This document shows positions 39,366 to 63,074 of a stretch of DNA of 64,000 nucleotides, in pieces. Within the stretch, counting starts at the first letter, position 1. Each line of letters opens with the position of its first letter. A program made the position numbers and the translations under genes. The stretch is from Antedon mediterranea (lineage: Eukaryota > Echinodermata > Crinoidea > Comatulida > Antedonidae), in NCBI RefSeq assembly GCF_964355755.1, contig NC_092673.1, positions 1,741,001 to 1,805,000 on the forward strand, written 5' to 3'. A model generated the notes under the pieces. That model was not told where the DNA came from and searched no databases. It worked only from the letters and a program-made list of their open reading frames with translations.

Positions 39366-42300
39366 TTAAAATTTAAAAATCAAATCATTGATTCGTTTCA
39401 TCGTCTGTCTTTGATCTTCTTCAGACATTCCTCTGAGCTCAGCCTCTAACCAATCGCAGAATGTGTCGATTGTGTCTTTTGGTTTCTCAGTACCTGCCTG
39501 TGTACAGACACATCCTGGAAATAAGGAAAAACCTTTAGTGATGAAAAGAAACTTAGATCCTTCCAAACGTAATTTTATTCATAGTTTACTTGTTTTGTTA
39601 ACCGTCCTCATTATTTAAACCATCAGGCATTTGATCTGATGTTAATAATCTGTTAATGTGTTTTAAAACATGTTGATATGATCAGTGAACCTAGTAGGCC
39701 TATGACTATTTCTTACCTCCTGCAGGTTGAGTTGTCGGCTTGTTTGCGTCGGTTTGAATTACTATATTTTGGGAAAATGTTCCATACCCGTAGACGTTCA
39801 TTGCTGCTACCTACAATGCAAGTTTGGATACTAAAACATTTGTACGGAAGTTATGTCTACGACGTTAAATTGCAGGCTTTCGAAACAAGCTTAGTGGTTT
39901 CATTTTTTTAGATTCGTTATATATACGCTTGGTTGGGAGTAGACGCGACGCAATCGAGTTGACAAATGACAACCGACAGTTTAAATACGCCATTGGCTGT
40001 GATTGGTCAAATCACTTAATAAGTTGCGTTTTACAATACAAAACACTTACCTTCACATTGTATTCAGTCTCTGGATTGATGTTATCGTCAATATTTATAT
40101 ATGTATTATTTGTATGAAATTGACTGATTTCAAACAAATTGGAAGTGATTCGGACTTGGTACCCAATGACGTCACACAGAATTGCATCTTCTGGTGGACT
40201 CCAGTTAATAGTGACGGATGATGCAGTTGTGCTGATCGAGGTTATGTTTGGAGCTCCCGGACCTAAAATATTTTAGAAACTTATATTTTATTTTTTTATT
40301 ATTTATTATTAAAACATTTATATTTGGTAATCCACAGTGATTAAGCCTGCAAAAATCTTGGAAGGTGCTATTATTAAAAATTATTTAAAATAACTAATTT
40401 TGTTTACTTAAAAGACATTTTGATTCAAGACATTGTAAGTGACTCACAGACTGAAGTGTATTATTTATAAATACATAGAGTGAAACTTCATATTATTAAG
40501 TTGGAAATAAAGATAATCACATTACACTATTAAAATACTTACAAAGAATATTTTTCACATTATTTATTTTATTGCAGGTCCGTAATAAGTGCTTTATTTG
40601 ATTTACCTAAGGGTTGTATTTTTAGGCGTTCTCCCCAATCTCCTGCAATATCTCTATTGTTAACAACTCTGGCATACACGTCATAGGGAACACATTTTGA
40701 TGTTATACTTATATCTCTGTTTGTTGTGTTGAGGATCTGTACGGCTCTATCGTATGTACTCAATCTCAATTGATATCGAAGTATGTCATTACACTGAATT
40801 CGCTCATATGCATCGGATACACTCTTTCATAGAAAAAAATTGGACAATATTAGAACACAGTTTAACAAGCATTGTGCCAACCTTCTCCCAACACTCTCAC
40901 TCCTGAGGACGATCAAAGCATAATTAATCGAAACGTCGATCAACAGTTCTTTTCCGAACTAATACACGTGCTGTACCGTAAACTTTATAGGCCTATCAAC
41001 ATTTGATTTCGCCATGCAAACCTTCAAACAGTACCATCCTGCTATTAAAAACCTTTTTTAACATTATTTTTATAGATCGGAAGGTTTTCAATGCTCATTT
41101 TGTATCAAAAACAACGAAGTGTTCCTTTCGGGAAGTAAATAAGGTCACAAAAAGGTAAGATATTTTGTAACATTCAATATAATCGGAAGTGAACAATAAT
41201 TACCTGTATTTCTAAGTAAATATAATGGTCTTCTGCTGCTTTCAATGTTACGGTTGGCGCGTCTAGAGGTCCTTTTTAAAAGAAATTAAAATAATGGAAA
41301 ATGATAAGAATACAGTAACAAGTTAACAAAACAAATGTTATAATAATTTGGATTGCTCCCTTCTTCAACCAATAATGTAATTCATGTGTAGAATACATTA
41401 TATCAACAATCACGGTACGTCAGTGGCCTATCGTCAGTCAGTCAAAGTCAGTTTATCACAAACTCTGTACATAGAAAAGAAAAGATAACTAAATGTTCTG
41501 AAATGATATATTTGGTAAAAAATAACTAAGATTATATACAATATACTAGAAATGGGAGTTAAAAAGGTATAAATAAAAATTGATTAAAAGCAGAAAACAT
41601 GATAGCCCTTTCCCCTCTTACTTGAACACTTCATGTCTGCATACCCATGAGGACTTGGCGGACCAACCGTCTCAATACCCGCCACCAATCTGCTGTGCTG
41701 AGCATAGAATTCAACATTAGACGCTGGTAAAATGTTATCAATGGTTATAAAGCTGTCACTGTCCGTTAAAGTAACTGAAGTAAATGTATCCAACGATGAT
41801 GTTTTATACCATACTCTTGTTGTAAGGATAGTTCCTGTCCCGTAGTCTTCACCTGGTACCCAAGAAGCGTCTATTGTCAATGTAGTTAGCGTTGAGGTGA
41901 CGATAGTCGGGGCGACGCTACGATATGGTAAAGCTACAAAAATAATAGGCTAAATTATTATGGTATTTATAATAATATAATATTTTTTATTTATGTCTTA
42001 CGCAATGTGGCCAAGGATTACCAACAGTGAATGAATCACTGTCCTATCAGATAGGTGTTAATCCCCCTGTTACAGGGGCTATTTTGTGAACCAGTATACC
42101 GGGGTAACCCCTACTCTTCTCGAATAATGAACTGGGTTCTTTTAAAGTGCGCACAGGTTATAACTGTGTACACTTGACCTAAGGTTTATAGTCCTTATCC
42201 TGTTCCACCACCAGAACTAGGAACGAGAACCCTTAGCCGATGTTGTCGGCTCTTTAGGTAGGGCCTACGGTAAACGGCGCCCCTGCCTTTACCACTCGGC

Positions 42301-45037
42301 CATTTGACTCGCTCTTATATATATAATAATTTACATCGGTTTATACTAGCAAACAGCCATAATAAATTAAATATACCTATACTACAATCATGGCCAGCCC
42401 ATGCCTCGTGACAGCCGACGTCACAGCTCCCATCCGTGTTACAATTACCATCATCCTTACAATGACACGGATAGTTACATAATATGCCAAACATACCATG
42501 TGTGCATCGAGACAAAACGGTTTCTTAAAAATAAAAACGTATTTTAAAGTGCATTGTGATATTAGTCCTACATATCAACATGGACAACATACGATAGATA
42601 TTTGTAATGTAATTTAACAGAATTACCACAATACAGTAACCAAGCAATAAATCGATTTCTTACTTTGGCATCCGGGTCCTTCGTAACCCTCTAAACATGT
42701 CGCATTTTCCCGGCATCCCCTACTATTGTCACAATCTTGTGGTTCGCAATAACAAGTTTGAAGACAATTTATTCCATAGTTCATTCCATAACACTCTATT
42801 GGACAATAAATGCATTTTTCAATCAAGGTAGAGTGGTTGAAAATAATACATGTAACGGTCAACTCGGACAGCGTCGTACGACGAGACCCGACGTCGGCAT
42901 AAACTAAAACATGTTTAATGTTCTCCCAACGACCTAAAAACTACGCCCGACCCTATCGCAAGACGACTCGTCTCGTGGGAATTCAACGTCGGGCCTCGTC
43001 GTACGATTCTGTCTGATTTAGCCTTTAGCAAATCAAAGTTAATCTATCTGGGAATACGAATACAGTCAGCAATCAATAAAATAAAATAGTTTAATTTACC
43101 TGTATAGCAATCGTTTCCGGTATACCCACGATAACAGGAACAGCCTACTGGATCTGGAGGACAAAAAGTCGTCCCTAAACATGTTGGATTACTGCTGCTA
43201 CAATTCATTTCACAATATCGACCCCAGTTACTTGACTCACAACCTACCAAAGTAAAGATTTAATTCATGTTGAAGGAATTATTTAAAACTATAACAAAAA
43301 TACTTTCTCCAGAGCGGGTATCTCTCACCAATCCACCCTATACTCCAGTAATTTAATATCTTTTTAGTACAACCCTGGTCATTTTGATACTCCATTAAGC
43401 CTATATAAAAGAAATTGCATTTTATTTGTCGGGCATTTGTATGATTTGTTTTATTTTTTTGAATGCACCTTGAGCACTCTTGAGTGGTATGTGCGCTATA
43501 AAAATCCTGTTATTATTATTGTTATTATTATTAGTGTTATTATTATTATTATTATATCCTATCATGTGGCCGATAAGCATTTCAAATGCAAAATATAAAT
43601 TTGTATGAATCACATACCACCGATGTAAAATAAAGCAATCTTACCCTTTTCACAATGTTCTCCCATAAACCCTACTGGGCAAACACATACACCCGTCTTA
43701 TCGTCACAAACTCCTCCATTGTAGCATACTGGACAGTCTTCCTCACAACCAGGGGGATTCCATTTTGGTGAAGGGCATTCTGAGTAAGATATGTAAAAGG
43801 TTTACCTTTTTTGTATTCTTTTTCAACCATTGAACCGATTAGGATTATTCATTGGTCATGTAATATTTCTAATACAGATAATTGATGATTTGATATTTGT
43901 ATTTACCTCTTACTATTAGTCTCATTATACCACCTCGCGTATACTCGTCAAACAAATAACATTGATACACCCCGTCATCTTTAGCACGTACATTATCAAC
44001 CGTAACGGTCTTTAAACGACGCCACTCCATAATTTCTGGACCATAATTATGTATCCAATGAAAATCCCAGGTACTCGAACTTCCTCTGTCGAGATTGATA
44101 GTGGCAGATTCACCAACACCGACCGTCAGTGTTCGGTACTCCGTTGTAACAGAACCTTTGGAAATAGATTGTATAATTATGAATAACCAAAACCTTAAGT
44201 AATACACATTATGTGTATTGGCCTATGAAATGTGTAATCATTTTATTCGTTTAATCGTATGTTGTTTAGAGTTCTAACAAAAATGAATTAAACTCACCTA
44301 GATATCTTGTGACGACAACTGCTGATCGAGTAATGACGTCGTTTTTAGACACCTCGAAAGTAAAGACACCAACATCTTGTTCTCTGGACAGATCTTTAAC
44401 ACCAAGATACATAAAGTCTTCATCAACAGAGTAAATAATACTGCCGGGCGGCGGTAAAACTCTGTCATCCGGCAAATCTATTGACAATTGGTTCAAATCC
44501 CCTGGGGTTTGGTTCAAATCCCCTGAATGGCCAGTGTCAGCCCAACTGATGTTTTTCTTCTCATCTTTATACAACCTGCCAATGCTAACATCTGTAGTCA
44601 TGCTGTTCTTTCCTATATACCCACGGAAATAGTTTTTCTCGGGTCCGCGTGCGAGAGCTCTTGCCACTATGGTAATATCTAAAAAATCTGAAAAATAAGA
44701 TAACTTTATTCGTCCACAAATGGAAATTATGATTGCCTCACACACGCAGCAGTTACAGAAAACAACAGTATTAATTACGGTGTATATAATATGTGATTGT
44801 CACCCAAACAAATTTAATTTTTGGAAAAATATAATGAAATGTGTCGTGGTTCACTATTCGTTTACATAATATTCAAAACAACCAGCGGGAGGTTTCTCTA
44901 TTTCACTCCAAAAAAAAAGCATTATATAGTGAATGAAAATGTTACTTAAATAACTATATATGTATAGTCTTACCTGAAGAGGGCTTTACTGCTGTAAGGA
45001 AACAGAAAACCACGACAATCCTAAATATAACCAACAT
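39366..45037 (-). CDS. Tie-like ectodomain protein A (secreted, kinase-less)
   Basis: Thirteen exons, 770 aa, frame continuous. In coding order: 44974-45037, 44298-44687, 43907-44155, 43645-43779, 43100-43243, 42664-42795, 42377-42523, 41622-41933, 41204-41271, 40607-40823, 40051-40262, 39717-39810 and 39366-39514. Order: signal peptide (1-21), Ig1-like (22-151, begins LDITIVARA), Ig2-like (152-234, ends RLIVRG), four EGF modules (235-420; the second has [10 protein letters not shown] as in Tie receptors), then FN3-1, FN3-2 and FN3-4 (421-721). The FN3-3 exon found in genes B, C and D is absent between 40263 and 40606. The C-terminus (722-770) has no membrane span and ends NDLIFKF. Family: ectodomain of Tie angiopoietin receptors, without kinase. 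An upstream ATG at 45046 opens a short overlapping frame. Ligand and function are unknown. Confidence 0.86.
39940..40020 (-). mobile_element. MITE family 2 fragment in gene A intron
   Basis: Contains GACGCGACGCAATCGAGTTG and GTGATTGGTCAAATCACTTA, shared with 13050-13203 and 13990-14065. It lies directly 3' of the FN3-4 exon. Confidence 0.4.
42003..42312 (-). mobile_element. tRNA-derived SINE in gene A intron 7
   Basis: Read on the - strand, the element begins near an RNA polymerase III A-box, TGGCCGAGTGG (42292-42302, an exact Ser/Leu-tRNA-type match), followed about 60 nt later by a weakened B-box, GGTTCTCGTTCC (about 42222-42233). The body continues to about 42003 with short inverted GGGGTAACCCC-like and CCCCTGTTACAGGGG segments. 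It lies wholly in the intron between the EGF4 and FN3-1 exons. A functional tRNA is excluded by the long divergent body. Confidence 0.6.
42865..43018. mobile_element. Small CpG-rich inverted-repeat element in gene A intron
   Basis: Ends are imperfect inverted repeats of about 35 bp: left CGTCGTACGACGAGACCCGA, right CGTCGGGCCTCGTCGTACGA. It is markedly GC-rich against AT-rich intron DNA. Size and structure fit a MITE; the family is unknown. Confidence 0.6.
43405..43556 (+). mobile_element. SINE/LINE-type 3' tail ending in (ATT)n, copy 1
   Basis: AAAGAAATTGCATTTTATTT, then GCACCTTGAGCACTCTTGAG, TGGTATGTGCGCTATAAAAA and an (ATT)n tract. A second copy lies at 52852-52978 in gene C. The GCGCTATAAAAAT plus (ATT)n ending is typical of retroposon 3' ends in marine invertebrates. 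Confidence 0.55.
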
Positions 45038-45076
45038 TCTGGTGCATGGATTCTTAGTAGTGTGAACTTGTCTACT

Positions 45077-45400
45077 CTACTTCCCAACGATATTAAGTTG
45101 GTTTTGGTAATTACTTGCTTTTTTATTATGCAAGATACCTTCATTGGCCCATAGAGGATTTCCTTTAGTATCGACACAACTTGGTACCTATTGTTATCCT
45201 TCTATTTCCTTTGCCAGGGGCGTGTGGGAAAGAGCTCGGTACCGATGTCATTTTATGGCAATCACGTGATCAATTATGTACAGGGTATCAAGGTGAACGC
45301 ATGCGCACAAACCAGACAAAAGTACATTTCCTGACACGACCCTGCTAAATGATAAACCATTTGTACCAAGATGTTCCAATGCACCTGGATCCTTATTAAA
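45077..45400 (-). promoter_or_regulatory. Conserved upstream module of gene A
   Basis: Shared with 50991-51340 (gene B) and 56624-56960 (gene C). Conserved items: GTAATTACTTG, TATCGACACAACTTGGTACC, an Ets-like TTTCCTTT next to a GC/KLF-type AGGGGCGTGTGGGAA (about 45216-45230), AGAGCTCGGTACC, an E-box CACGTG (45263-45268) and an NRF1-like GCATGCGCAC (45299-45308). Order and spacing are kept in all three copies, which supports a duplicated promoter rather than chance. Confidence 0.6.
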
Positions 45401-45559: not shown

Positions 45560-48500
45560 TTAAAATTTAAAGATAACATCATTGATTCTTTTCATTAATT
45601 GCCTTTGATCTTCTTCCGACATTTCTCTGAGGTCAGCCTCTAACCCATCGCAGTATGTTCCAATTCTGTCTTCCTCGACCTTATCGACTAGCTCTTCTGA
45701 AAATGAAGCATTATGAGAATCGTAAAATGTTTACTACTTCTGTTAATTGTATTTATCGTTTTAACTAGGCTAGCAGTTATGGTTTGTATGGCTAAGTTAT
45801 AGATGTATCTTACCATTTGCTTCAGATATTTCTTGCTGGTTATTGTCTCCCGGCTGATTTGCCGATTCTTTGTTTTCGACGTCAGTTGTAATCATTATAT
45901 TTGGAGAAAATTCACCAAATCCTTTGATGTTTCTTGCTGCTATCTACAATTCAAATTATATATTATTTTTCATGTTTTGTATGAAATCAACTTATGTTTA
46001 TTTAACATCTATTAGCAGTAATGTTTTTTCCACAAACCTTCACAATGTATTCAGTTCCGGGATTAATGTTTTCTTCAACATGTAAATGCTTATTAGTTGT
46101 AAGTTTGTTGATTGTAAACAAACATGATGTGATAATGACATTGTATTCAATGACGTCACACAAAGTTCGGCCATCTGTTGGACTCCAGTGAATAGTAATT
46201 GAATCTGAAGTTGTGGAGAGTGACGTAATATTTGGGGCTCCCGGATCTACAAATTAAACGAAATGATTTTTTATTTCTTTGTCCTATACTGATAGTTTGT
46301 TTATTTCAACATTAAAAGCAAAATCACAAACGATTGAATAATTTATATGTTATTTTTGGTCCTTATACAATCAGTACAAACTAAATCAATCGTCGATTTT
46401 TCGTAAACTTAGTTAACTTACATGTTGTTGCAGCAACAACGTCTTCCAGAACGACCGTTCCGTTTGAGTTTAAATAAGAACTCCAAACTAAGAAGGTGTA
46501 CGATTCACATGCTTCAATTCCTTCATTCAGTATCACGTGAGTTGCTGTCGTACTCCCCTCTTGTTGTACGATTCCATTTTGCAGCAATTGATAGAAATAT
46601 CGAATATTTTCATACGAAACACAAGATGCAGCCGCCCATCTCATTATAAGTGCTGTTTCATTAGCAGTCGAGTCTTCATTATTTGAAGGTGCTGGTTAAA
46701 AATTGAAGACATTAAGAAATAAACATACGCTTAACATCTAGTATTAATAAAACATATGAAAATATGGTAATATTGGGAGATGGGGGTTGTTGTCGTTTTA
46801 ATTAATTATGTTATGGTTAAAGATACAAGTGCTTTACGATAGAATAGTTACAATGAATTCTTCTTGGTTCCATATAAGGGATAATAATAATACCTATTGC
46901 ATTTACCTAAGGGTGGTATGTGTAAGTGTTCTCCCCAATCTCCAGCAATATCTCTATTGTTGACAATTCTGGCATACACGTTATAGGCAACGCATTTTGA
47001 TGTTATAATTGGTACTTGTCTGTAATAACCGTCCGTTGTGTTGACGATATCGTGTACGGTTCCGTCAATACTCTCGTATCTCACTTGATATCGTAGTATG
47101 TTATTACATTGAATTCGTTCAGGAGCATTAGAGACATTCTAGATAGAAAAGTAGTATAATCCGCAATTGGAAGAATTTTTATATCGATTTTTAACTAAAT
47201 CTGCTACTTTTTAAAAACGTGTATAGATTGGAAGGTTGTCAGGGCTGATACTGTGATAAGAACCTAGCCACGATGCACGTTCGTTTGCCATACTAGAAAT
47301 TAATCATACAGGTAAGGTATTTTTATTTTTAATACCATAATATTAACGAGAGAATTGAACGTACCTGTACTTCTAAGACGATATAATGTGCTTCAATTGC
47401 TTTCAATTCTACGGTTGGCTCGTCTAGAGGTTCTTAATGATATAATATAACATTTAACGTACAAATGATGTAGTTTACAGTCAATATACTGTATAGTTCA
47501 ACGTTTTTATTTATTCATGAGGTCTTTTCTTGTGTTCGATACCCAACTAAACTCACTTGTTGTATGACATATTAAATGATGTAATTAGGAACATACTTTT
47601 AAAATTACATTGACAAAAAAAACAAATGAGAAAAAGAATTGTATATTAGTTTAGAATATAAAGGGAAATTACTGAAAAAATGATAATTCTGTGGGTATCA
47701 GTGGCTGGATCTCAATTAAAATACAAAATAAAATAAGCAAAAAGCTAAATCAAAGTAAAAACAGCCAGATTAGTAGATCTTTCGGGCAACAGTACAAGTG
47801 AGCGTACTTGGACAAAGTAGTAGAATTAATTAGTTTAGAATATAAAAGCATTATAAATTCTTACTTGAACATACGATGAGTGCATAGCCATTTGGGCTTG
47901 GTGGACCATACGTCTCGACACCTGCTACCATTCTGCTGTGTTGCGTGTAGAATACAAGATGAGAATCTGGTGATATGTTATCAATAGTGATAAAGTCATC
48001 GTTGTTTGTCGTATTAACTGAAGTAAATGTATCCGATGATGATGTTTTATATTTATACCAAACTAATGTTGACACAATAGATCCTGTTCCGTAGTCTTCA
48101 CCTTGCACCCAAGAAGCGTCTATTGTTAGCGTGGTTGCAGTGGAGCTGACAACAGTTGGCCCGGTGCTACGGTACGGCAAAGCTTGACCAAGAAAAGACA
48201 ATTGGGACTAATATTACAACCATGATGAAGTAGTCAACTGTAATTGTTTCCAATTTAAGTAATGAACTTAGTTTATATTTCATAAAAGCAAATATTTATT
48301 AAATATACCTATACTGCAATCATGCCCTGCCCATCCATGTAGACACCCAGCATCACAGCTCCCATCAGGATTACATTTCTTATCTTTCTTACAATGACAC
48401 GGGTAGTTACACAACACGCCAAACGTATGGTGTGGACACTCTCGATTCAAAACTATAAAAAATAAATAAAATCCACATTTATATTGTAATACTTTTTATA

Positions 48501-50954
48501 AGGTTTATTATTCTCAAAAATAGAATGAGTCTTACCTTGACATCCGGGTCCTTTGTAACCATTTGTACATGTCGCATTTTCCCGGCATCCCTTACTATTG
48601 TCACAATCCTCTTGCTTGCAATGACAAGTCTGAAGACAATCTGCTCCATATTTTAAGCCACTACACTCTGTTAAAAGGTAATTTTTCAAAGTAAAATTCA
48701 ATTCAATTTTTTTTCAATTCAAAAAGCATTATTCACGTCCAGAATACAAATAGTAACAAAAACAAAATGGCAAGTGATAAATGATGAATGTACTGTGTTA
48801 TGTGATTTTATTCTTTTTCCTATGTAAATGATGACAAATTAACTGACCTGTTTGGCAATCGTTTCCGCTATACCCACGATTGCATGAACAACCAACTGGG
48901 TCAGGAGGACACAACAGCATACCAACACAATGTGGATTACCGCTTTCACATTTCATATCACAATATCGACCCCAATTGCTCGACTCACAAGCTACCAAAA
49001 TAATGGATTGTATTATTAAAGAGTTCACTTGAATAAGATCATTTGAAATGGGAAATAGGCCTACATGTGAGCGATTAGCGTCTGTATGACCACAAATAAT
49101 GCATTTAATGTTGCTTACCTTTTTCACAATGTTCTCCCATAAACCCTGCTGGGCAAACACATACACCCGTCTTATCATCACAAACTCCTCCATTGTAGCA
49201 TACTGGACAGTCCTCCTCGCAACCAGGAGGATTCCATTTTGGTGAAGGGCAATCTAATTATAGTTTACAAGTGGAAAACAGTTAAATTAATTCAATTCTT
49301 TTTTTTTTTTAAGTAAACATTTCCTCCTATCTTTTTAAATATTTCTTACAAAACAGTTTTTTCAAAAAATGTTCCATACTCCTTCATGTCTTACTTTGTT
49401 GGCATGGTATTAAAATACAAAAATGCAAAATATACAGAGTTAAATTCAGTAAAATACAGAGTTAGTCACTATTAAACTATTTGTACTAACCTCTTACTAT
49501 CAATCGCATTATACCTTGACGCCCATTAATACTAAAATAACATTCATACACTCCGCCATCTTTAGCGCGTACATTATAAATGATGATGGTCGATAACCAT
49601 CTCCAACTCGGAACCTGTGGACCATAGTTGTGTCTCCAGCGAAAACTTAAGGGATGGGTAGGACTTCTGTCGAGACTGATATCGACTGTTTCGCCAACAC
49701 CAACAGTCATCGTTCTAGAATCCATTTTAGTGGAAACTGTAGATAGATAGTTTTATGATTGTTATGCTTGTTATTTAATCGGCTTTCTGGTCTTTTGTCT
49801 CATGCGTCTTTTTCAGACTAGTTATAGAAGAGGACTGCCACCAAACAAAACATGTAGTAGGCCTACTAACAGTTCAGAGGATTATTACATTTTCCCAGCG
49901 TTGTCGTCATCCGTTTCATTTGTCTATTGAAGGTGAAACAGTTTATTCATTTATGATATTACCACAATGTATGTTTTTTTAATTTATCATAATTTTACAT
50001 TTTGTAAGGAATTGCTTATAAAAAATGAATGAAAACTTGCCGTAAAACGTGACAACAACAGCTGATCTAGTAATGACGTCATTTTTAGATGCTTTGAAGG
50101 AATATACACCGACCTCCTGTGCTGTTGGTAGACCTTTAACACCGAGATACATAAAGTCTTCATCAACTGAGTAAACCAAACTGCTGGGCGTGTTAAAGAC
50201 TCTATCATCCGGCATATCTATTGATAAATTGCCTGTTTTTTGGTTTAAATCACCAGAATTACCAGTGTCGGCCCAAGTGACGTTTTGCTGGAAATCCTTA
50301 TGCAACATGCCAATGCTAATATCTGTTGTCATGTTACCCTTTCCTATGTATCCACGTACATCGTTCTTACCACCTGGGCCAACCTGTGCTCTTGCCAGGA
50401 TCGTAATGTCCAAAAAATCTGTAAATATGAGAAGAGCTGTGTGTTTTTTTAAAGTAACGCCCTGTCTGCAGGGTTTAACAAGATGAAAGATGACGTGGAA
50501 AATGACCAGTCGCCTTATTTAAATTGTCCAGAACCCACCTGTGTGTTGGCATAGTTATATCATAGTTCATTTTGGCCTATTCCTTTGCATATTCAAAACA
50601 ACTACGAGCAGAATATACTCTGCACTCTGGGTCTACTCAATATTACAATGATGAAAGGAACCGATTTTCTGATAATTTAATTTTGACTTTTTCTACTGCA
50701 GCTGCAGTATTAGTATACAATACTAAAACCAACATACCAAAGTATGAAGTAAACGGAAGTGTGGAAATGATTGAGTTGGAATTGCATACCAGATTGGTAC
50801 CATATTGCAACGACAAAAACTCTTCTTTGACTAAATTCTTGTTCACACGAAAAAGTGATTGAAATTTTAACTAATAATAAATCTTACCTGAAGATGTTTG
50901 TACTGTTGTAAGAAAACAGTACAAAATCGGCACAATTTTGAATGTAGCAAGCAT
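45560..50954 (-). CDS. Tie-like ectodomain protein B (secreted, kinase-less)
   Basis: Fourteen exons, 869 aa, frame continuous. In coding order: 50888-50954, 50041-50418, 49491-49736, 49119-49253, 48848-48991, 48536-48667, 48309-48452, 47865-48182, 47365-47432, 46907-47138, 46422-46691, 46038-46246, 45814-45943 and 45560-45696. This is the full domain set: signal peptide (1-22), Ig1-like (23-148), Ig2-like (149-230, ends RLIVRG), EGF1-4 (231-415), four FN3 modules (416-521, 522-621, 622-711, 712-824) and a C-terminal tail (825-869) ending NDVIFKF. The tail is charged, with no hydrophobic span, so the protein should be secreted. The intron after the Ig1 exon starts with GC (TACG then GCAAGT), whereas genes A, C and D have GT there. 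Closest to gene C overall; the FN3-3 exon is closest to gene D. Confidence 0.87.
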
Positions 50955-50990
50955 TCTGATACCAAATTCTGCTGTAGTGATGTTGTTTTA

Positions 50991-51511: not shown

Positions 51512-54500
51512 TTAAAACTTAAAAATGAGATCATTAATTCGTTTAATAAGCTGTGTTTGATCTTCTCCCGACATTTCTCTGAGGTCAGACTTTAACCAAT
51601 CGCAGTATGCTCCGATTTTGTCGTTTTTCTCGATTGGCACACATTCTGAAAACAAAGCATTAGAAGAATCGTAAACGCAAAATCTCTCAAAATATTATTT
51701 TCCTAACTAAGTTAACATTGTTTTATGGATAGTAGATATAGCTGCTTACCATTTGTTTCAGATATTACGTGTTGGTTATTGTCTCCCGACAGATCAGTTG
51801 TTATCACTTTATTTGGAGAAAATTTACCAAATCCTTTGACGTTTCTTGCTGCTATCTAAAATTCAAATTATACATTCTTGTTACGTTTTTGTGAGTTATC
51901 AACAGTGTTATGCATAGCAGTAATGAATAATTATGTTGTATTTTCAATGTTTTTTAAAGCATACCTTCACATTGTACTCAGTTCCTGTGTGAATGTTTTC
52001 TTCAACATGTAGATACTTATTAGTTGTATGTTTGTTGATTGTAAACAAACATGATGTGATAATGACATTATATTCAATGATTTCACACAAGCCTCCATCA
52101 ACTGGTGGACTCCATTGAATAGTGATCGATGACGCAGTTGTGCAGAGTGACGTAATATTTGGAGCTCCCGGATCTACAAATGAAGCAAAATTCAAAAGCT
52201 TAGAATGTTCTTACTTTTATTCCCTTTCCTCATACATAAGACAGGAACGAAACACAGTTTTTAATATCAAATGATGGTTATAATTAATGGGCATACATTA
52301 TATTTGGATAAAGAAACCAGCTCAGTTTACTTACAAGTTGTAGCAACAATTTCTTGCTGAAAGGCAGTTCCGTTCATGTTGAAATAAGAACTCCAAACTA
52401 AGAAGGTGTACGATTCACATGCTTCAATTCCTTCATTCAGTATCACGTGAGTTGCTGTCGTACTTCCCTCTTGTTGTACGTTTCCATTTTGCAGCAATTG
52501 ATAGAAATACCGGATATTGCCATACGAAACACAAGATGCAGCCGTCCATCTCATCATAAGTGCTGTTTCATTAGCGGTTGATTCTTTGTCATTTGAAGGA
52601 GCTGTTTAAAAATTCCATGCTTAAATTTATGCTTAAATTTGAGAAATTTTGCATTTAATTGCGGTCTAAATTCCATTCAATTTAGGAAATATAGTCTGTA
52701 GGCCTACATCATATGAAGAAATTATTCGTTTATCTGTTATTGTTCCTAGTTGCCGGTCGTCTGTGGCAAGGCAAATGTGTATCCTGCTCCTTTGTTTGGT
52801 CACCTAGGTAGGGGTCCGGGACCGCGACAGAACGACAACGGATGGGGACCCTCCAAAGAAATTGCATTTTATTTGTCAGGAATTTGTATGATTTATTTCT
52901 TTTTTATTTTTAAATGCGCCTTGAGCACTCTGGAGTGGTATGTGCGCTATAAAAATCTTATTATTATTATTATTATTAGTTTATTTTTTATGTTAGGAAA
53001 GTCATGCCTTTAAAAAGACTTTACAATGACTGCTTTTATTTCTGCTAATCCTTAGTTCATGTGCTAAACATTGCATTTACCTAATGGTGGTATGTGCAAG
53101 CGTTCTCCCCAATCTCCAGCAATATCTCTATTGTTGACAACTCTAGCATACACGTTATAGGCAACACATTTTGATGTTTCAATTGGTACTTCTCTGTTAT
53201 ACCTGTCTGTTGTGTTGACGATGTCCCTTATAGTTCCATCTATACTCTCGTATCTCATCTGATATCGAAGTATGTCATTGCATTGAATTCGTTCATGGAC
53301 ATCGGAAACATTCTAGAAAAAATATTTGTAACTATTGGAAGGTTGTCTATTCTATATTGTTAGATAGCAAAACCTTGGTAACACTTTTGTAAATTTTTAT
53401 AGAGCCAGTGTCAGTAGTAACGTTATATTATTTTTAATTATTTTTTTAAAAACATACGCCGTAATGTGAATTCGTAGATCTAGATAAAATATAAACATAC
53501 CTGTATTTCTAATACGATGTAATTGTCGTAAATTTCTTTCAACTCTACGGTTGGCTCGTCTAGAGGTTCTTGAAGGGTAAAATAATGTAAATTTTAGTAA
53601 CAGTGATAGGTTTATTCTAAATATGATGCCGTTAATATGTGCCCTTTTCTTGAGTTCTTGAGAAGTATTTCAACTCACTTGAATGATACATTAGCTAAAC
53701 AATGTATTTATGAATATAATGTTAAAATAGCACCGACAAGAGAAACAATTAAATCTGAAATGCTTATTGCTTAATATTTAGGTATTCTTACTTGAACAAT
53801 TGAGGTCGGAATACCCTTTCGGACTTGGTGGACCAAACGTCTCAATACCCGCCACCATTCTACTGTGATGAGCGTAGAATTCAACATTTGACTCTGGTAA
53901 AATGTTATCAATAGTGATAAAGCCATCGTTGTTAGTCGTATTAACTGAAGTAAATGTGCTCAATGGTGACATTTTATATTTATACCACAATGATGTTGTA
54001 ACAATAGTTCCTGTCCCGTAGTCTTCACCTGGTACCCAAGAAGCGTTTATTGTTAGCGTAGTTGCGGTCGAGCTGACGACAGTTGGTGCGGTGCTACGAT
54101 ATGGTAAAGCTTAACCAAGAAAAGAAAATAGTTTGTTTATTAGTTTCCACAAATAATACATATAATTGTCTTAATAAATCTTTAAATATTTATAAATGTG
54201 GATGGTGGTCACAATATTAAGTCTAGAAGTAGACTTTAAACAGAGAGTAGAAGTAACAAGTTGAATTATAACCACAATGATAAGTCAAATGTAATTGTGT
54301 TTTCAATCGAGTAATTTATACTTCACAAAAGCAAATACATTTTTAATTTACCTGTACTGCAATCATGGCCTGCCCATCCCTGTAGACACCCATCATCACA
54401 GCTCCCATCAGGATTACACTTACTATCACCCATGCAATGACACGGGTAGTTACACAACACACCAAACGTATGGTGTGGACACTCTCGATTCAAAACTATA

Positions 54501-56542
54501 TCAAATAATAAAATACATTATATTGCAATTTTTTTAAAGTTGTTATTCTCACGTAATTCTTTCAATAAGAAAGAAGATGAATTCTTACCTTGACATCCGG
54601 GTCCTTTGTAACCATCTGTACATGTCGCATTTTCCCGGCATCCCTTACTATTGTCACAATCCTCTGGATTGCAATGACAAGTTTGAAGACAATTTGCTCC
54701 ATATTTCAAGCCACTACACTCTGTTGAAATATAATTTGTTAAAGTATGTCCAATATTACTCCTTTTCCTATTATTAGAAAATACATAGTATGCAAATGAT
54801 GACAAATTAACTGACCTGTGTGGCAATCGTTTCCGCTATACCCACGATTGCATGAACAACCAACTGGGTCAGGAGGACACAACAGCATACCAACACAATG
54901 TGGATTACCGCTGTCACATTTCATATCACAATATCGACCCCAATTGCTCGACTCACAAGCTACCAAAATAATGGATTGGATTATTAAAGAACATAATGGC
55001 GACGAGCATTTGAGATGTTGTAAGGCGACTGACTGACAAATAATGCATTCAAAACTTTGCCTACCTTTTTCACAATGTTCTCCCATAAACCCTGCTGGGC
55101 AAACACAGATACCCGTCTTATCATCACAAACTCCTCCATTGTAGCATACTGGGCAGTCCTCTTCACAACCAGGAGGATTCCATTTTGGTGAAGGGCAATC
55201 TAATTAAGCATACCGTATACATTAACATTTTTTGAACATTTCTTTTTTTTACGGTAACGTCTTTGGAGACTATCTCTCTTTCTTGTAGACCTTTTTTAAA
55301 ACTTAAAATGAAGGGAGTGGTCCTCTTTTTGTTTTAGACCTACTTTGTCATTTTTAGTTATACATTTTATTCACTTAATCTCACTATCAATAATTATTAT
55401 TAGTTATTATTAATATTTGTATTTGTACTAACCTCTTACTATCAATCGCATTATACCTTGACGTCCATTAACATACAAATAACATTCATACACTCCGCCA
55501 TCTTTACCGCGTACATTAGGAATTACAACGGTCGAATAACCATCCCACTTCCAAATCTTTTCACCATAGTTATGTCTCCACTGTTTAGTCCAGCTGTTTT
55601 TACCCGTGTCGATGTTGATAGTGACAGATTCACCAACACCAACCGTCAATGTTCTAGACTCCATTGTAAAATCACCTGCATTTTATTTGTATCAAAATAT
55701 AATAAATACGATAACAAGAATGGAAAGATTGGATGGATTTTGTATTTACTCTGGTTGCTGAAGCGATCATCTCTTTTACAAAGCACGGTGGTTCCTTATT
55801 TTTGTGTCTATAGAATGTGCCATTGTTTATTCATTTATGCCATGAACACTTCTCAAATGTTTTTAATGTTTTTTTTACTTTACTTACCGTACATTCGTGT
55901 TACAACGACAGCTGATCTAGTAATGACGCCATCTTTAGACGCTTCAAATGTATGCACACCGACCTGTTGTGTTACTTCTAGATTACTAACACCAAAATAC
56001 ATAAAGTTTTCATCAATAGAGTAAGCCAGATTGCTGGATGTGTAAAAGAGTCTATCATCTGGCATATCTATTGGTACATCACCTGTTGTTTGGTTAAAAT
56101 CTCCCGAATAACCAGTGTCAGGCCAGCTTACATTTTTCTTGGAATGTATTAGGAACATGCCAATGCTGACATCTGTTGTCATATCATTCTTCCCTATATA
56201 TCCACGGATGTCATGTCCATCGACTCCAGCTGCAAGTGCTCTTGTCAGTATAGTAATGTCCAAAAAATCTGGAAATATGGCAGAAACTGTATTTTGTGTC
56301 ACCATAATATTTTGAAGAGTTTGGAGAGTTGGACAGCGAGACGTTTCAAAGGGTTGAACTGTCAGAACATTCTGTGGTGACTTTATGTTTATGTAAGCTA
56401 ATGGTGGTTGCCTAAGCTCTGTTCAGACGAAAAGAGGTAACACCTAGGATTTAGAAATAAAAATACCATGAGTCTTACCTGCAGAGGTTCTTGTAAGAAA
56501 ACAGCAGAACAAAATCGACACAAACTTTAATGTAATCAGCAT
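51512..56542 (-). CDS. Tie-like ectodomain protein C (secreted, kinase-less)
   Basis: Fourteen exons, 858 aa, frame continuous. In coding order: 56479-56542, 55888-56268, 55433-55675, 55065-55199, 54816-54959, 54589-54720, 54352-54495, 53792-54109, 53501-53568, 53081-53312, 52335-52601, 51965-52173, 51750-51855 and 51512-51645. Signal peptide (1-21), Ig1-like (22-148), Ig2-like (149-229, ends RLIVRG), EGF1-4 (230-414), four FN3 modules (415-814) and a C-terminal tail (815-858) ending NDLIFKF. The penultimate exon is 24 nt shorter than in gene B. EGF2 carries [10 protein letters not shown], matching the Tie EGF2 signature. No membrane span or kinase follows before the polyadenylation signal. 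It starts 515 bp from gene D on the opposite strand. Confidence 0.87.
52852..52978 (+). mobile_element. SINE/LINE-type 3' tail ending in (ATT)n, copy 2
   Basis: About 120 bp shared with 43405-43556: AAAGAAATTGCATTTTATTT, GCGCCTTGAGCACTCTGGAG, TGGTATGTGCGCTATAAAAA, then (ATT)n. The GC-rich 52745-52851 in front of it may be the rest of the same element. Confidence 0.55.
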
Positions 56543-56623
56543 TCTGATAAAAAAAAATACTGCATACACTCCCAATAATGTTGTTTCATATACTTTACTA
56601 ACACTTGCTTACTTACTTTCTTA

Positions 56624-56960
56624 CTTTTAGTAATTACTTGATTTTGAACCAAGAACCATTATGTCTTGATTGACACATGATGATTAATTTCCTTTATTAT
56701 CGACACAACTTGGTACCTATTGTTATCCTTCTATTTCCTTTTCCAGGGGCGTGTGGGAAAGAGCTCGGTACCAAAGTCATTAATATATTGATTATTGGTA
56801 TCACGTGATCAATGTGCAGGGCATCAAGGTGAACTTTGAAGAACGCATGCGCACAAACTATCTCAGGCGACAGAGTAATATCATCTCCTCACATGACCCT
56901 GACAAAGGAAGTAATGTAAGAATAACAGTTGGTACCATGATGTTCCAATGCATCTGGATT
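56624..56960. promoter_or_regulatory. Shared upstream module between genes C and D (candidate bidirectional promoter)
   Basis: Third copy of the module: GTAATTACTTG, TATCGACACAACTTGGTACC, AGGGGCGTGTGGGAAAGAGC, E-box CACGTG (56812-56817) and GCATGCGCAC (56845-56854). It is the only intergenic DNA between the divergent starts of C (56542) and D (57058), so it probably serves both genes. Confidence 0.55.
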
Positions 56961-57057
56961 TCGGATTATAAAACAGTAAACAATAAATAAATTACCGAAA
57001 CAGCACTGTACCGAAAAATAACATAGAAGTTATTGAGAGTTTGTCAGTATTATCAAC

Positions 57058-60000
57058 ATGCATGCGATACTTCATATTGTGACAGTAGTTTGCTGTTTAT
57101 TTAAAACAACCCAAACCTCTTCGGGTAAGTCTGTGTTTGTTTATTATGTACAGAAGAAAACAAGGCCATATACATGGCTGCAGTCGCGTGCTCAAGTTAC
57201 TGTTTACCGACCAACCGACCGACCGGCCGGCCGACATAATGAGCTGTAGAGTCGCATTGCACGCACGCGACTGAAAACTATTCTTCTACAATTTCGTACT
57301 ACTTGGTGTACCATCATCGGCAACTATGTATTTTTTGTTTCAATTGATCTTCTCGAGTTCAATAATATAGTGTTTCATACGTCTGTAATTCAATAGCATC
57401 ATTGATATTTAAACATTGTTAAATAAGTAGGCCTACCAGTATATTCCGAATATTTGTAATTCATGTCAACAGGTTACTGTCACTTAGCCTAATTTTTAGG
57501 ATGTACTTTCAATAAAGAAACTTATTTTTAATTACAATATTTATTTTTCACATTATTAAATGCATTTCTGTCAAACACGAAATTATAATCTCCGTTATAA
57601 TTTGGTACTATGGCTATTTTTAGTCGCGTGCGTGCAACGCGACTCTACAGCTCACTATGTCGGTCGGTTGGTTAGTCGGTCGGTCGGTAAACACTAACTT
57701 GAGCACGCGACTACAGCCATGTATATGGCCTTGTTTATATTCATTGCAAAAATGGTGTGGTTATAACATCAAGAAACGAACTTCATATTCACCTTTCTAT
57801 TAGACCAATACAACTAATTGTTAGTATTATAACATTATATCTATTTCAGAGGTTTTAGACATTACTACGTTGGCAACATCACTTGCAAGCGATACTCAAA
57901 ACGAAGCCCGTGGACTTATAGTGAAAGGCAACATGACAACAAATGCTAGCATTGGTATTTTGTATAAAGACGCCAAACAAAATGTAAGCTGGGCTGACAC
58001 CGGTCATTTGGGAGATTTTAACGACACAACGGGTTATTTAACCTTAGATATGCCAGATGATAGAATATTTTCCACAACTAGCAAAGTGACTTACTCTGTC
58101 CATGAAGACTTCATGTATCTTGGCGTTAAGAGTTTACCATTTGGTCAAAGAGTTGGTGTGTTTTCATTCGAAGCGTCTAAAGACGACGTCCATACTAGGT
58201 CAGCTGTTGTAGTCACTGAATTACATGGTGAGTTTTATTTCACATAATACCTTACAAAAGGAGTACTTTTATATATAATATGTCTGCGCCCATGTGCCTG
58301 CAGCAATTTTATGAACAGTGCCCCAGCTATCTCTTGCTTATTGTACGATCTATGAGTAAGGCATGTCATGGTCTTCGTTTTATCATATACCTTTGCCTCT
58401 GATAAGCTTAGTTTGGTTTGGTCCACATTGGCCAGTCTATTTTCTTTGATGACCAACCACATTACGTACATTATCACTTTAACAGCCTAGTATTTCTCCA
58501 GAAATTCTCAACCATTATCTCTATATCCTTTTGGAAACAAATGGTGTACCGCAAACCAAATAATTATATTACAGGTACTATTACAATGAAATCCAGAACA
58601 CAAACTGTCGGTGTTGGTGAATCTGTTACTATTTCACTGGATAGAGGCAGATACTTGTACTCTTTGCAGTGGAGACATAACTATGGCGACCCAGTTACCA
58701 GGTGGTATTCTGAAACATCAATTACACTTAGCAATATACGCGCTAAAGATGGCGGCGTGTATGAATGCTACAAATATGAAACCGGACGGCATGGAATAAT
58801 GAGGTTAATAGTAAGAGGTTAGTCACCTGATTTCTTCAGATCTTTTTACATTGTTCTTTATATCTGTAGTCAAATAACGACGACGAGACATGCGTATAGT
58901 AACGCCTCTGAGATGCAGTCCATATCTATCGCGGCTTACGCACATTATCCTATTCATGTTATACTGAATGGAAAATGTTTTATTATCGCCATAGGTTGCC
59001 CTTCACCCAAATGGAATCCTCCAGATTGTGAGGAAGATTGTCCAGTATGTTACAATGGAGGAGTTTGTGACGACAAGACGGGTGTCTGTATTTGCCCTGC
59101 AGGATTTACTGGAGAACATTGTGAAACCGGTAAAAACACATTATTTTAACAACACATTCTTATGTTATGGTTTGGTAGATAGCAGCGCCGCGGCAGCCAC
59201 ACCACCAAACCAAGACTCAGACCTTCTTCAAAGTTCCATTCTTTATCAGTTATGCCATCTCTGCATATTCACATTGCTTTGTTTACATTCTTATCTTTGC
59301 TAGCTTGTGAGCTGCACAACTGGGGTAGGACGTGTGCTCTTGGTTGTACAAGTGGTAGCAACCCTACTTGTATGGGTGTGCATTTTTGTCCTCCTGATCC
59401 TGTCGGTTGTTCATGTTATCGTGGCTATAGCGGAAACGATTGTCATACGGGTTTGTTGGCTAGTCACTTATTTTATAATGCTTTATATGCGCTTTAATGT
59501 ATTCGATGATTATTATGAACGTAAACACTTACATTTTGACGACGCAAGCTCAAATGCTTAATACATATTGCCAACTAATTAAAATAGTAAATGTACGAGA
59601 TGTGCCCATATATGGACATGATGATTTCAATCCTGAACTATTCCACTCAACGAGATGTGCCCATATATGGACATGATGATGTCACATCACTATCATATTT
59701 GGCCATATCACTACCATATTTGGGCACATCACACTTTTTTTGTCAAACTAGTTTGATGTGCAGACAGAGCTTTAGATCTGAAACATTGTGTATTATGCAT
59801 AATTATTTTTGTTACAGCTTGTACATATAAACAATATGGAGCAGATTGTCTTCAAACTTGTCACTGTTCATCCAACGATTGTGACAATGGAAAAGGATGC
59901 CGGGAAAACGTGACGTGTTCAGACTATTACACAGGACCCGGATGTCAGGGTAAGAAACCGATTCATCTTTGATTGTAAATTTTATTTTGCTTTTTTTTAT

Positions 60001-63000
60001 TTCACCACCTTCTGTTCTTTTTTTATATAGTTTGTTGTGTATTCAGAAAGATTTTAAATTACTTTTTTTATAAAACGTTTCAGTACCGTCAAATTCAGAA
60101 AACTTTCTTTCGCAATTCAGTTTTTTAACTGGTTTTTTCCTCTTTCGTGGCTGAACCACCACTTTTATTCATTCATTCAAAAATATGGAAATGAATAATG
60201 TAAGTTAATCAGTAATATGTTATATTTGTTGTAAATATAACAATCTTCACATCTACACTTCCTTTTTTGTAATTTTCGTATGTTTTAAAACTTTTTATCC
60301 ATAAATAATAGTTTGATTTGATCTTATCTGTTTTCTTTTTAAATAGAACGAAAATTAGACCGTAGCTGTCCGTACGGTACGTTCGGTTTATTATGTAACT
60401 ATCCGTGTCATTGTAAAAGTGATGCTCCTTGTAATCGAGATGGTAGCTGTGATGCTGGGTGCCACGAGGCATGGGCTGGTCATGACTGCAGCATAGGTAT
60501 AGTTTGTTTATAAATATTCTTTATGATGTTCCTGTTTGGTTTATCAAATATTTTATACAATGTCATGAACCAATCCATAATTTGACGACGATGATGATGA
60601 GTAAGATGATGATGACGATGATTACGATTATGATTACTGTAGTGAATCTGTACTATTCTTGATTTAAATATAATTAATGATGAATGTTCACAAAAGTTGC
60701 ATTGTATTTGTCGAAAAGTGGGGATGATCAAAATGAAAAGAACAATTACGTAAAATAATCAAATTTACAAATTGAACAAGAAAGGATTAATTAGGGAAGT
60801 AAAAATACTGAATAATAACGAAATAAATTCTTTATATTTTCTTTTTTTTGCTAAAAAATGGTAAAGTTGATTCCGGTTTTTCAAATTGGAACAGTTTGTT
60901 TGACACAATTTGTGTTTGATTTACATACAGTAGCTGGACCCCAAGAAGATGCATGTATTCTATATTATATAACCTAAATAAATTTCTGTCATTTGACTGG
61001 ACGAATGTGGGCCACATGGCGTGCAATAGTACGCACTATTACTATAGGACGTCAGTAGTATAATACGATACCATTTTGTGTTTTTAAACTGGTATAGGTA
61101 TACTATTGAAAATAAATAACTATAGAAATAATAAATATTCTATAAAATCAAAACAATAATGAATTGTTGTTTCTTAATTCTATCTAGAATGTTTCTAGTG
61201 CTCCTGAACGAATCCAATGTAATGACGTACTTCGATATCAAGTGAGATACGAGAGCATTGACGGACATGTTGAAGGCGTAATCAACACAACCAAACTCAA
61301 TCTCCAAGTGTCAATTATTGGAATATCAAAATGTGTTGCTTATGACGTAGACGCTCGAGTTGTTAACAGTAAAGACATTGCGGGAGATTGGGGAGAGAAC
61401 CTACATATACCACCCTCAGGTGAATAACAAGTTAAAGATCTACCAGATGTGTATACAGTACCTGCTTCTAAAATGAGTAATGATGTGATATGCAACCGAA
61501 TGTTGTGTTCAGAATTATTCCAAGTATGTTTTATTTTTCTCAGCGCCCTCAATTACCGAAAATTCAACCACCAATGAAACTACACTGTTGATGAAGTGGA
61601 AGCCTGCATCATGTGATTCCTATGGAAATCTGCATTATTTCTATCAATTGCTGCAAAATGGAAACGTACAGCAAGAGGGGAGTACGACAGCAACTCACGT
61701 GATACTGAATGAGGGAATTAAAGCCTGTGAATCGTATACCTTCTTAGTTTGGAGTTCTTATTTAAACTCAAACGGAACGGTCGTTCTGGAAGACGTTGTT
61801 GCTGCAACATGTAAGTTAATGACTTTGTCTATTCATTTCAATCAATTTAATTTGATTTCAATGACGTGATGTTCTTAAAAAGAGGTCTATAGATTTGAGG
61901 GTCGCTCTTTGTTGCCACACAACCCCATTTTTATTCATTTTAATATATATGTATAGATCCAAACGCTCCAAATATTACGTCACTCTCCACAACTGCGTCA
62001 TCGATCACTATTCGATGGAGTCCACCAGTTGATGGAAGCTTGTGTGACGTCATTGAATATAATGTCATTATCACATCATGTTTGTTTACAATCAACAAAC
62101 TTACAACTAATAAGTATCTACATGTTGAAGAAAACATTAACACAGGAACTGAGTACAATGTGAAGGTATGTTTTAATGTTTATTCTATATTATAATATCT
62201 GAACGTTAATGCAAAATCATTAATGTCTGATATTTGAAAGGCGTCATACCATTATCCCTTTACATAATTCTGTTAAAGTAGGCGCGCGGGAAACAATGAT
62301 AGTATTAATGTTTATTGTTTTAGATAGCAGCAAGAAACGCCAAAGGATATGGAGAATTTTCACCGAACGTGATGGTGGCAACTGACGTCATTAAAGATGG
62401 ACAAATCAATGATCTGCCTGCTGCTGCTGCTGCTGGAAACGCCGAAACAAATAGTAAGAAAATCTCAAATTTAATTCACATTTATTTAGCGTCATGCGTA
62501 TCTGGATTCAAGACTTAGTTTTGACTTAATATTAGTAAAAAGATAAATATTTTGCCACTACTTGAGCTTGTAATTTTTCAGACAAAAATCGACTAACATA
62601 AAAAAAGACAATGAATACAGACTTGTCTAGTCTACATAAAGTCTAGTCACAATTGTATTATGGTGGCTAATGGCACTCGGTATGCCTTTCTCTTCCTTAG
62701 GCCTTTTATAAAATCAGCATTTGTATACAACAATATTTATGTTATTTTGTTTATAGTTCAAAAGGATGAAGAAAGTAACAGTAATACAAGTTATATCATT
62801 GCGGCCATTTTACCATCACTCTTTCTACTTATCATCATCTTGTTGTTGTTGCTTGTCATCAGGTAACGAACATTTTTCATATTAAATTAATTTATTAATA
62901 TCACATAAACTTACATAAACTTACAGAATTCATGTTTGTCGCATTACATTTCAAGTATTTTATGTATTTATATCTTGCAGAAAACTTAAGAAACAAAATG

Positions 63001-63074
63001 CGTCGCAAGAAAATAGTAAACATATAAATAATTACTTGAGAATGGATGCTGTGAACAATCCAGAAGAAGCATAA
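57058..63074 (+). CDS. Tie-like ectodomain protein D (membrane-anchored, kinase-less)
   Basis: Thirteen exons, 764 aa if the downstream donor of exon 7 is used: 57058-57124, 57850-58227, 58575-58817, 58995-59129, 59304-59450, 59818-59949, 60347-60501, 61188-61419, 61544-61810, 61957-62165, 62324-62453, 62757-62862 and 62981-63074 (TAA). Signal peptide (1-22), Ig1-like, Ig2-like (ends RLIVRG), EGF1-4, the second half of FN3-2, FN3-3, FN3-4, a stalk with a run of Ala (AAAAA), a transmembrane segment (about 711-733, IIAAILPSLFLLIIILLLLL) and a 31-residue cytoplasmic tail with YLRM. The FN3-1 exon and first FN3-2 exon are missing from 60502-61187. The usual exon-7 donor (after 60496) would give a stop at once; a GTTTGT donor 5 nt later restores frame. 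No kinase follows. If that donor is not used, D is a pseudogene. Confidence 0.8.
57158..57736. mobile_element. Inverted-repeat DNA element in gene D intron 1
   Basis: 579 bp with terminal inverted repeats of about 119 bp: AAACAAGGCCATATACATGG at the left and its complement at the right, each followed inward by GTCGCGTGCTCAAGTTA, a run of GACC/GGTC tetramers, and TGAGCTGTAGAGTCGC. Arms differ at only a few positions. No coding capacity and no obvious target duplication; class unassigned. It lies 33 nt inside the intron from the exon 1 donor. Confidence 0.8.
59595..59774 (+). mobile_element. MITE family 1, copy 5, in gene D intron 5
   Basis: Carries a tandemly duplicated segment (CGAGATGTGCCCATATATGG at 59595 and again at about 59651) and the right end GTGCAGACAGAGCTTTAG. 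It ends 44 nt before the EGF3 exon, so it supplies or abuts part of the branch-point region. Confidence 0.65.

What the first reader, a model, noticed from the sequence alone, without database searches (positions are those of the whole stretch)
39366..63074. A four-gene cluster of Tie-like ectodomain proteins with no kinase
Seen: four paralogues share exon order and phases, an Ig2 module ending RLIVRG, an EGF2 with [10 protein letters not shown] and FN3 modules. Known: Tie receptors have Ig-EGF-Ig-FN3 ectodomains followed by a transmembrane segment and tyrosine kinase. None of the four has a kinase, they carry a fourth EGF where Tie has its third Ig, and B and C carry four FN3 modules instead of three. 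Inference: this is an expanded lineage-specific family acting as decoys, co-receptors or recognition molecules rather than signalling kinases.
Basis: partly seen in the sequence, partly recalled or inferred. Interest (0 to 1): 0.88.

Follow-up and report, generated by a model that had tools for sequence, protein, structure and literature searches.

The report
Feather-star Tie-like genes lacking enzyme domains
Four neighbouring feather-star genes carry the outside part of a Tie-type receptor but no enzyme part; their closest enzyme-bearing relatives are receptor phosphatases rather than kinases, and three of the four look like secreted proteins with a new tail and a fast-changing binding domain.

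Summary
The cluster is real. The window is from the crinoid Antedon mediterranea: gene A equals public protein P0002, and P0001 is B minus its first 51 residues. A, B and C splice cleanly: leader, Ig1, Ig2, EGF1-4, three (A) or four (B, C) FN3. They have no kinase, phosphatase or transmembrane segment and end in a shared 44-49 aa exon not seen in the other fetched proteins. D keeps a transmembrane exon and a short tail but lacks FN3a and FN3b1. The Ig2-EGF1-3 block is Tie-type (best solved match Tie2, E 1.8e-32).

The closest relatives with this ectodomain that keep an enzyme are crinoid receptor tyrosine PHOSPHATASES (P0005, P0010, P0019). Of 40 crinoid rows among the 120 listed, 5 bear a phosphatase domain, 0 a kinase. 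A-D form one clade (100/100). Ig2, the ligand-binding module of Tie2 (recalled), is unusually divergent within this cluster. Best reading: a tandem family that lost its phosphatase half; A-C became secreted, perhaps oligomeric recognition or decoy proteins. Binding, secretion and expression are untested; the genome could not be searched.

The parts
39366..45037 (-). Gene A, 13 exons, 770 aa, Ig1-Ig2-EGF1-4-FN3a-b-d-tail, no transmembrane segment
   Evidence: Splice model; identical to public protein P0002
45560..50954 (-). Gene B, 14 exons, 869 aa, four FN3, tail, no transmembrane segment
   Evidence: P0001 (818 aa) is its exact C-terminal part
51512..56542 (-). Gene C, 14 exons, 858 aa, four FN3, tail, no transmembrane segment; 75% identical to B
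57058..63074 (+). Gene D, Ig1-Ig2-EGF1-4-FN3c-d-transmembrane-short tail, 685 aa if the FN3b2 exon is skipped; FN3a and FN3b1 not found in 60497-61187
39366..39514 (-). Tail exon of A (49 aa)
   Evidence: no Pfam family at its cut-off
45560..45696 (-). Tail exon of B (45 aa)
   Evidence: A-B 76% identical over 37 residues; dN/dS A-B 0.34
51512..51645 (-). Tail exon of C (44 aa)
   Evidence: dN/dS B-C 0.24, A-C 0.52
43907..44155 (-). Ig2 exon of A (fast-diverging module)
49491..49736 (-). Ig2 exon of B
55433..55675 (-). Ig2 exon of C
58575..58817 (+). Ig2 exon of D
61188..61419 (+). FN3b2 exon of D: open, but out of phase with EGF4 without its FN3b1 partner
62757..62862 (+). Transmembrane exon of D
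   Evidence: hydropathy only
62981..63074 (+). Cytoplasmic tail of D with one YLRM (YxxM) motif, then stop
45038..45400 (-). Conserved upstream block of A (like B 50955-51310 and C 56543-56920), with CCCACACGCCCCTGG at 45214-45228
   Evidence: 3 matches, one with a mismatch; none in 100 shuffles; the motif was picked by eye from these blocks

Best explanation
The cluster is an Antedon tandem family derived from a crinoid receptor tyrosine phosphatase with a Tie-type ectodomain. Shown by sequence: intact coding models (A-C), Tie-type Ig2-EGF1-3 block, no catalytic match in the window, monophyly, phosphatase-bearing close relatives, shared new tail in A-C, transmembrane exon in D, excess Ig2 divergence. 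Inferred: the phosphatase half was lost; A-C are secreted and oligomerise through the tail, which looks helical by eye and has one conserved cysteine; their varied Ig2 domains bind ligands of the Tie/phosphatase system, or foreign or self surface molecules, and so act as soluble decoys or opsonin-like recognition proteins. D is the membrane-bound member, without an enzyme.
For: A and B are in public annotation with the same tail. Ig2-EGF3 tree: A-D 100* inside a 31-row clade (95*) of 30 crinoid rows and one brittle-star row; its 5 rows with a catalytic domain (P0005, P0010, P0019, P0035, P0034) are phosphatases, none a kinase. Careful tree: A-D 100/100; the nearest row outside the cluster for each of the four is the phosphatase P0005. 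The phosphatase-domain tree groups P0010, P0005 and P0019 (93/98), as the ectodomain does, so both halves seem inherited together. P0004 and P0009 match P0010 to about its residues 882 and 892, just into the phosphatase domain that starts at 879, and then end. dN/dS is below 1 in 68 of 72 exon comparisons, tail 0.24-0.52. Upstream blocks of A-C are conserved. Ig2/EGF1-4 distance ratio is 1.54-5.97 in 6 window pairs against 0.30-1.25 in 25 pairs of two other crinoid groups.
Against: Loss is inferred from parsimony: catalytic-less relatives outnumber phosphatases (35 of 40 listed crinoid rows), and several may be cut-off models. P0035 is phosphatase by Pfam label only: no active-site motif and no match. 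A second crinoid group with a phosphatase (P0067 and 6 others) branches elsewhere. Which crinoid group is sister to A-D is unresolved (one grouping 73/63). Ig2 dN/dS stays below 1 (0.20-0.84), so relaxed constraint is possible. Gene conversion of other exons may inflate the Ig2 ratio: B-C EGF2 dS 0.00, C-D FN3d1 dS 0.03. The Ig1 ratio does not set the cluster clearly apart. The tail search found only P0001 and missed A's own tail in P0002, so absence elsewhere is weak. C and D have no listed row of their own. No expression, secretion, oligomer or binding data; signal peptides were judged by eye.
Confidence: 0.58

Rival explanations
1. Kinase-less relatives of a Tie receptor kinase: the family lost a kinase and acts as decoys for an angiopoietin-like ligand.
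For: Ig2-EGF1-3 block is Tie-type: the three best solved matches are Tie2 ectodomains, E 1.8e-32 to 3.1e-32; of 18 vertebrate rows listed, 17 are named Tie-1 and one has a cut-off receptor-kinase name. The own genome was not searched, so a crinoid Tie kinase is not excluded.
Confidence: 0.17
2. Degenerating duplicates of the phosphatase genes: truncated, mostly neutral by-products of tandem duplication.
For: D lacks FN3a/FN3b1 and has an orphan exon; A lacks FN3c; 3 of 72 exon comparisons had dN/dS above 1 and one had dS 0; several relatives end early too.
Against: A-C are intact over 13-14 exons, share a conserved tail and upstream block, and dN/dS is below 1 in 68 of 72 comparisons, EGF1 0.04-0.12.
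Confidence: 0.15
3. A-C have a second isoform with a membrane anchor or enzyme through an exon not recognised here; the tail is one alternative ending.
For: No transcript data are held; D shows that a transmembrane exon exists in the family.
Against: No phosphatase or kinase match in the window; no transmembrane segment in the A-C models; D's transmembrane/tail part has only weak matches elsewhere in the window, best E 0.051 at 48709-48819, in an intron between EGF exons of gene B.
Confidence: 0.1

Closest known systems
Crinoid receptor tyrosine phosphatases with Tie-type ectodomain (P0005 Anneissia; P0010, P0019 Antedon)
   Same: Ig2-EGF1-4-FN3 order, with Ig1 in P0005 and P0010 (P0019 starts at Ig2); 41-48% identity to B
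   Different: They have a transmembrane segment and PTP domains (HCSAGAGRTG in the first domain of all three); A-C have neither, D only the membrane part
Vertebrate Tie1/Tie2 and sea-urchin SpTie1/2 receptor kinases
   Same: Ig2-EGF1-3 block incl. LIVR junction and PDP.GCSC motif
   Different: Tie has Ig3, three FN3 and a kinase (recalled); here EGF4, 2-4 FN3, no kinase. SpTie1/2 is known to me from passages and reference lists
Starfish Tie-like proteins (Patiria P0046 kinase, P0096 phosphatase)
   Same: Same Ig2-EGF1-3 block; the two share 66% identity over 756 aligned columns of ectodomain although one ends in a kinase and the other in a phosphatase
   Different: Longer N-terminal part before the block; P0010 and P0046 align only over residues 125-370 of P0010
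Soluble decoy receptors such as soluble VEGFR1 or shed Tie ectodomains (recalled)
   Same: Ectodomain without enzyme or membrane anchor
   Different: Those arise by splicing or shedding (recalled); here separate genes with a tail of their own

Membership tests
Tie receptor tyrosine kinases | Ig2 followed by three Tie-type EGF modules | tested here: met
   Tie2 4k0v and 2gy5, E 1.8e-32 and 3e-32, over residues 202-381 of A; profile block at 75% length or more in 148 of the 234 proteins searched, incl. vertebrate Tie-1
Tie receptor tyrosine kinases | Third Ig between EGF3 and FN3 (recalled) | tested here: not met
   EGF4 in its place in 4 of 4 genes
Tie receptor tyrosine kinases | Transmembrane segment | tested here: not met
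   Absent in A-C, present in D (hydropathy)
Tie receptor tyrosine kinases | Tyrosine kinase domain | tested here: not met
   No match in the window at E<=1
Crinoid Tie-ectodomain receptor tyrosine phosphatases | Ig1-Ig2-EGF1-4-FN3 ectodomain and descent | tested here: met
Crinoid Tie-ectodomain receptor tyrosine phosphatases | Transmembrane segment and PTP domains | tested here: not met
   No PTP match in the window; transmembrane segment only in D
BESS-motif proteins (tail) | Pfam BESS match of the tail | tested here: not met
   No BESS hit for the tails at a limit of E 10 (HMMER's filters drop most matches above about 0.1); the resemblance was recalled
Soluble decoy receptors | Binds the ligand of a signalling relative | not testable with these tools
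   Needs a binding assay

The most novel reading that the evidence does not exclude
A receptor phosphatase family with a Tie-type ectodomain gave rise in crinoids to a separate secreted recognition system: an oligomer-forming tail replaced membrane and enzyme, and the ligand-binding Ig2 domain diversified while the EGF scaffold stayed nearly fixed. More widely, in echinoderms one Tie-type ectodomain is exchanged between opposing enzymes, kinase and phosphatase, so receptors for the same ligand could send opposite signals.
Probability: 0.3. Interest if true: 0.8.

Novelty: new variant of a known kind. Interest (0 to 1): 0.58.

Why it matters
In vertebrates the phosphatase VE-PTP dephosphorylates the Tie2 kinase (abstract starts of PMC10774230 and PMC10086590, listed). 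In echinoderms the Tie-type ectodomain itself sits on phosphatases as well as on kinases, and in this cluster on neither. That makes the history of Tie signalling, and of how receptors gain and lose enzymes, directly testable, and it offers a candidate recognition family in crinoids, a class with few known immune receptors (that last point is recalled).

Tried and rejected
Plain descent from a Tie kinase: rejected as first choice, not excluded. Origin in the MEGF family: two listed hits are named MEGF (P0026, P0047), but the best solved matches and 17 of 18 vertebrate rows are Tie. BESS domain for the tail: not supported; the weak Pfam matches (TelA, YqzH and others) lie below their cut-offs. 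An FN3a or FN3b1 copy in D's gap: no convincing one (best blastn E 0.028 over 27 bases, with the B intron query). Other copies of the family in the rest of the window: none at E<=1. Eight paper searches listed no paper whose title or abstract start concerns Tie-type ectodomains on phosphatases or this crinoid family; subscription papers are mostly not held. Passages only were read of PMC8662651, PMC13409769 and PMC12113024; PMC11310086 held none of the terms asked. The bacterial-type promoter scan, tRNA scan, Rfam scan and NCBIfam were of no use.

Rows dropped before counts: the tree used 93 of the 148 proteins with a block of at least 75% length, chosen by hand, leaving out P0001 and P0002 (same as B and A) and many near-identical vertebrate, starfish and amphioxus rows. 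The tree used 31 hand-chosen rows. In some searches Antedon and 5 Anneissia proteins were chosen by hand. Searches list only the best 120 of 207 and of 4526. The phosphatase tree has 11 rows; P0035 did not match the query. Enzyme labels in the trees are Pfam labels from the listings.

Confidence of the main reading went from 0.60 to 0.58 and that of the Tie-kinase rival from 0.15 to 0.17 because of P0035 and the limits.

Full report
What is there. The window comes from the feather star Antedon mediterranea (Echinodermata, Crinoidea). P0002 equals my splice model of gene A letter for letter, and P0001 equals B without its first 51 residues. Genes A, B and C lie head to tail on the minus strand; D follows on the plus strand, back to back with C. 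A-C have matching exons and phases and no internal stop. Best local identities between the four models run from 48% (D against A over 718 columns) to 75% (B-C).

Architecture. All four start with a hydrophobic leader (judged by eye), then an Ig1-like exon, Ig2 ending in LIVR, four EGF exons and FN3 exons. B and C have four FN3, A has three; D has FN3c and FN3d and one orphan half. Pfam itself recognises only one EGF and one FN3 above cut-off in B and scores the Ig domain below cut-off; the other modules are assigned by exon and by similarity among relatives. A-C end in an exon of 44-49 aa with one conserved cysteine. Hydropathy finds no transmembrane segment in A-C after the leader, but one in D. 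D ends after a short tail with one YxxM motif, whose chance expectation was not computed. There is no phosphatase or kinase match in the window at E<=1. A further gene seems to begin at about 63697 and the window ends at 64000, so exons further downstream of D were not seen; D's in-frame stop and several AATAAA signals after it make them unlikely.

What it is related to. The Ig2 end plus EGF1-3 matches Tie2 in the structure databank (E 1.8e-32; residues 202-381 of A); the next best match is to receptor phosphatase S, over residues 615-720 (the last FN3) (E 5.9e-12). Of the 120 listed hits of 207, 40 are crinoid; by Pfam label 5 of these carry a phosphatase domain and none a kinase (my count from the table). 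The kinase forms listed there are from the starfish Patiria, the brittle star Amphiura, a sea urchin, amphioxus and vertebrates. P0005 and P0010 have Ig1-Ig2-EGF1-4-FN3-transmembrane and two phosphatase domains; P0019 starts at Ig2. The ectodomain tree (93 rows, quick method) puts A-D (100*) in a clade of 31 rows (95*), 30 of them crinoid and one from Amphiura, with five phosphatases by Pfam label and no kinase; another crinoid group of 7 rows with the phosphatase P0067 lies elsewhere. A careful tree on 31 rows gives A-D 100/100 and leaves open which crinoid group is sister. The phosphatase domains of P0005, P0010 and P0019 group together (93/98), as their ectodomains do, so ectodomain and enzyme seem to have travelled together in crinoids. 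The simplest reading is that the ancestor of this cluster carried the phosphatase and lost it. P0004 and P0009 end just inside the phosphatase part, if their gene models are right. No row named from a crinoid is among the best 120 of 4526 hits to a starfish Tie-type kinase domain, but only 8000 candidates were scored and the genome itself could not be searched.

A wider point. In the starfish Patiria, P0046 (kinase) and P0096 (phosphatase) are neighbours in the tree (96*) and share 66% identity over 756 aligned columns of ectodomain. The match stops 5 residues before the transmembrane segment of P0096 and 138 before that of P0046, ahead of both enzymes. Tie-type ectodomains have thus been exchanged between opposing enzymes in echinoderms, if these models are correct. 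Starfish coelomocytes have been reported to carry both a Tie-2-like kinase and a receptor phosphatase F-like protein (passages of PMC13409769); whether that phosphatase has this ectodomain is unknown.

Are the genes used? dN/dS is below 1 in 68 of 72 exon comparisons. Exceptions are EGF3 A-C 1.19, FN3b1 A-B 1.14, FN3d1 C-D 2.20 with dS of only 0.03, and EGF2 B-C with dS 0. The last two point to recent gene conversion. EGF1 is nearly fixed (0.04-0.12) and the tail is constrained (0.24-0.52). Upstream blocks of A, B and C are strongly conserved in their central part, with a 15-base motif, picked by eye, at 3 places and in none of 100 shuffles. The public models of A and B include the tail. C and D have no row of their own among the listed hits.

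The tail. Among 230 fetched proteins a profile of the three tails hits only P0001 and P0002 clearly (next E 0.064). The database search with B's tail returned only P0001, but it also missed P0002, so it says little about relatives as distant as A's tail.

Ig2 divergence. The protein distance of Ig2 divided by that of EGF1-4 is 1.54-5.97 (median 1.75) in the 6 window pairs but 0.30-1.04 in 15 pairs of the Antedon group with P0010 and 0.70-1.25 in 10 Anneissia pairs. Mean Ig2 identity is 57% in the window against 83% and 80%. The same ratio for Ig1 does not separate the cluster clearly (1.46-5.42 against 1.01-1.81 and 1.37-2.92). Differences crowd into loop-like stretches, judged by eye on the alignment. 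Pairs are not independent, and conversion of other exons may add to the contrast. Ig2 is the angiopoietin-binding domain of Tie2 (recalled).

Mechanism, with steps marked. Shown: coding integrity of A-C, no enzyme match, no anchor in A-C, anchor in D, common tail, Ig2 contrast, position among phosphatase-bearing relatives. Inferred: loss of the phosphatase, secretion, oligomer formation by the tail, ligand capture by varied Ig2 domains, decoy or recognition role. Not tested: expression, ligands, partners. Absence of a crinoid Tie kinase is not shown.

Verdict. It is a new variant of a known kind: a Tie-type ectodomain family that in crinoids belongs with receptor phosphatases and has here no enzyme and, in three genes, no membrane anchor.

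Noticed in passing
23855-24424 and 28419-29024, minus strand: Homeobox gene resembling Lbx (ladybird): homeodomain E 1.7e-21; the Lbx name and the N-terminal exon are recalled resemblance.
   Followed up: partly
51954-52181 and 61949-62176: FN3d1 exons of C and D are 94% alike on opposite strands (dS 0.03) while neighbouring exons differ much more: probable recent gene conversion. B-C EGF2 (48821-49022 / 54789-54990, 98%) likewise.
   Followed up: partly
57158-57277 and 57617-57736: 120-nt inverted repeat, 91% complementary, in intron 1 of D; looks like a fold-back mobile element.
   Followed up: no
43408-43545 and 52855-52995: About 140-nt repeat, 85% alike, in non-matching introns of A and C; probably a mobile element.
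   Followed up: no
63697 to about 63825, plus strand: Possible start of a further gene (MASASNAEESYEEIELESTRKEEDD...), no Pfam match in its first 42 residues.
   Followed up: no
P0046 and P0096 (Patiria miniata): A similar Tie-type ectodomain (66% identity over 756 columns) ends in a kinase in one protein and in a phosphatase in the other.
   Followed up: partly
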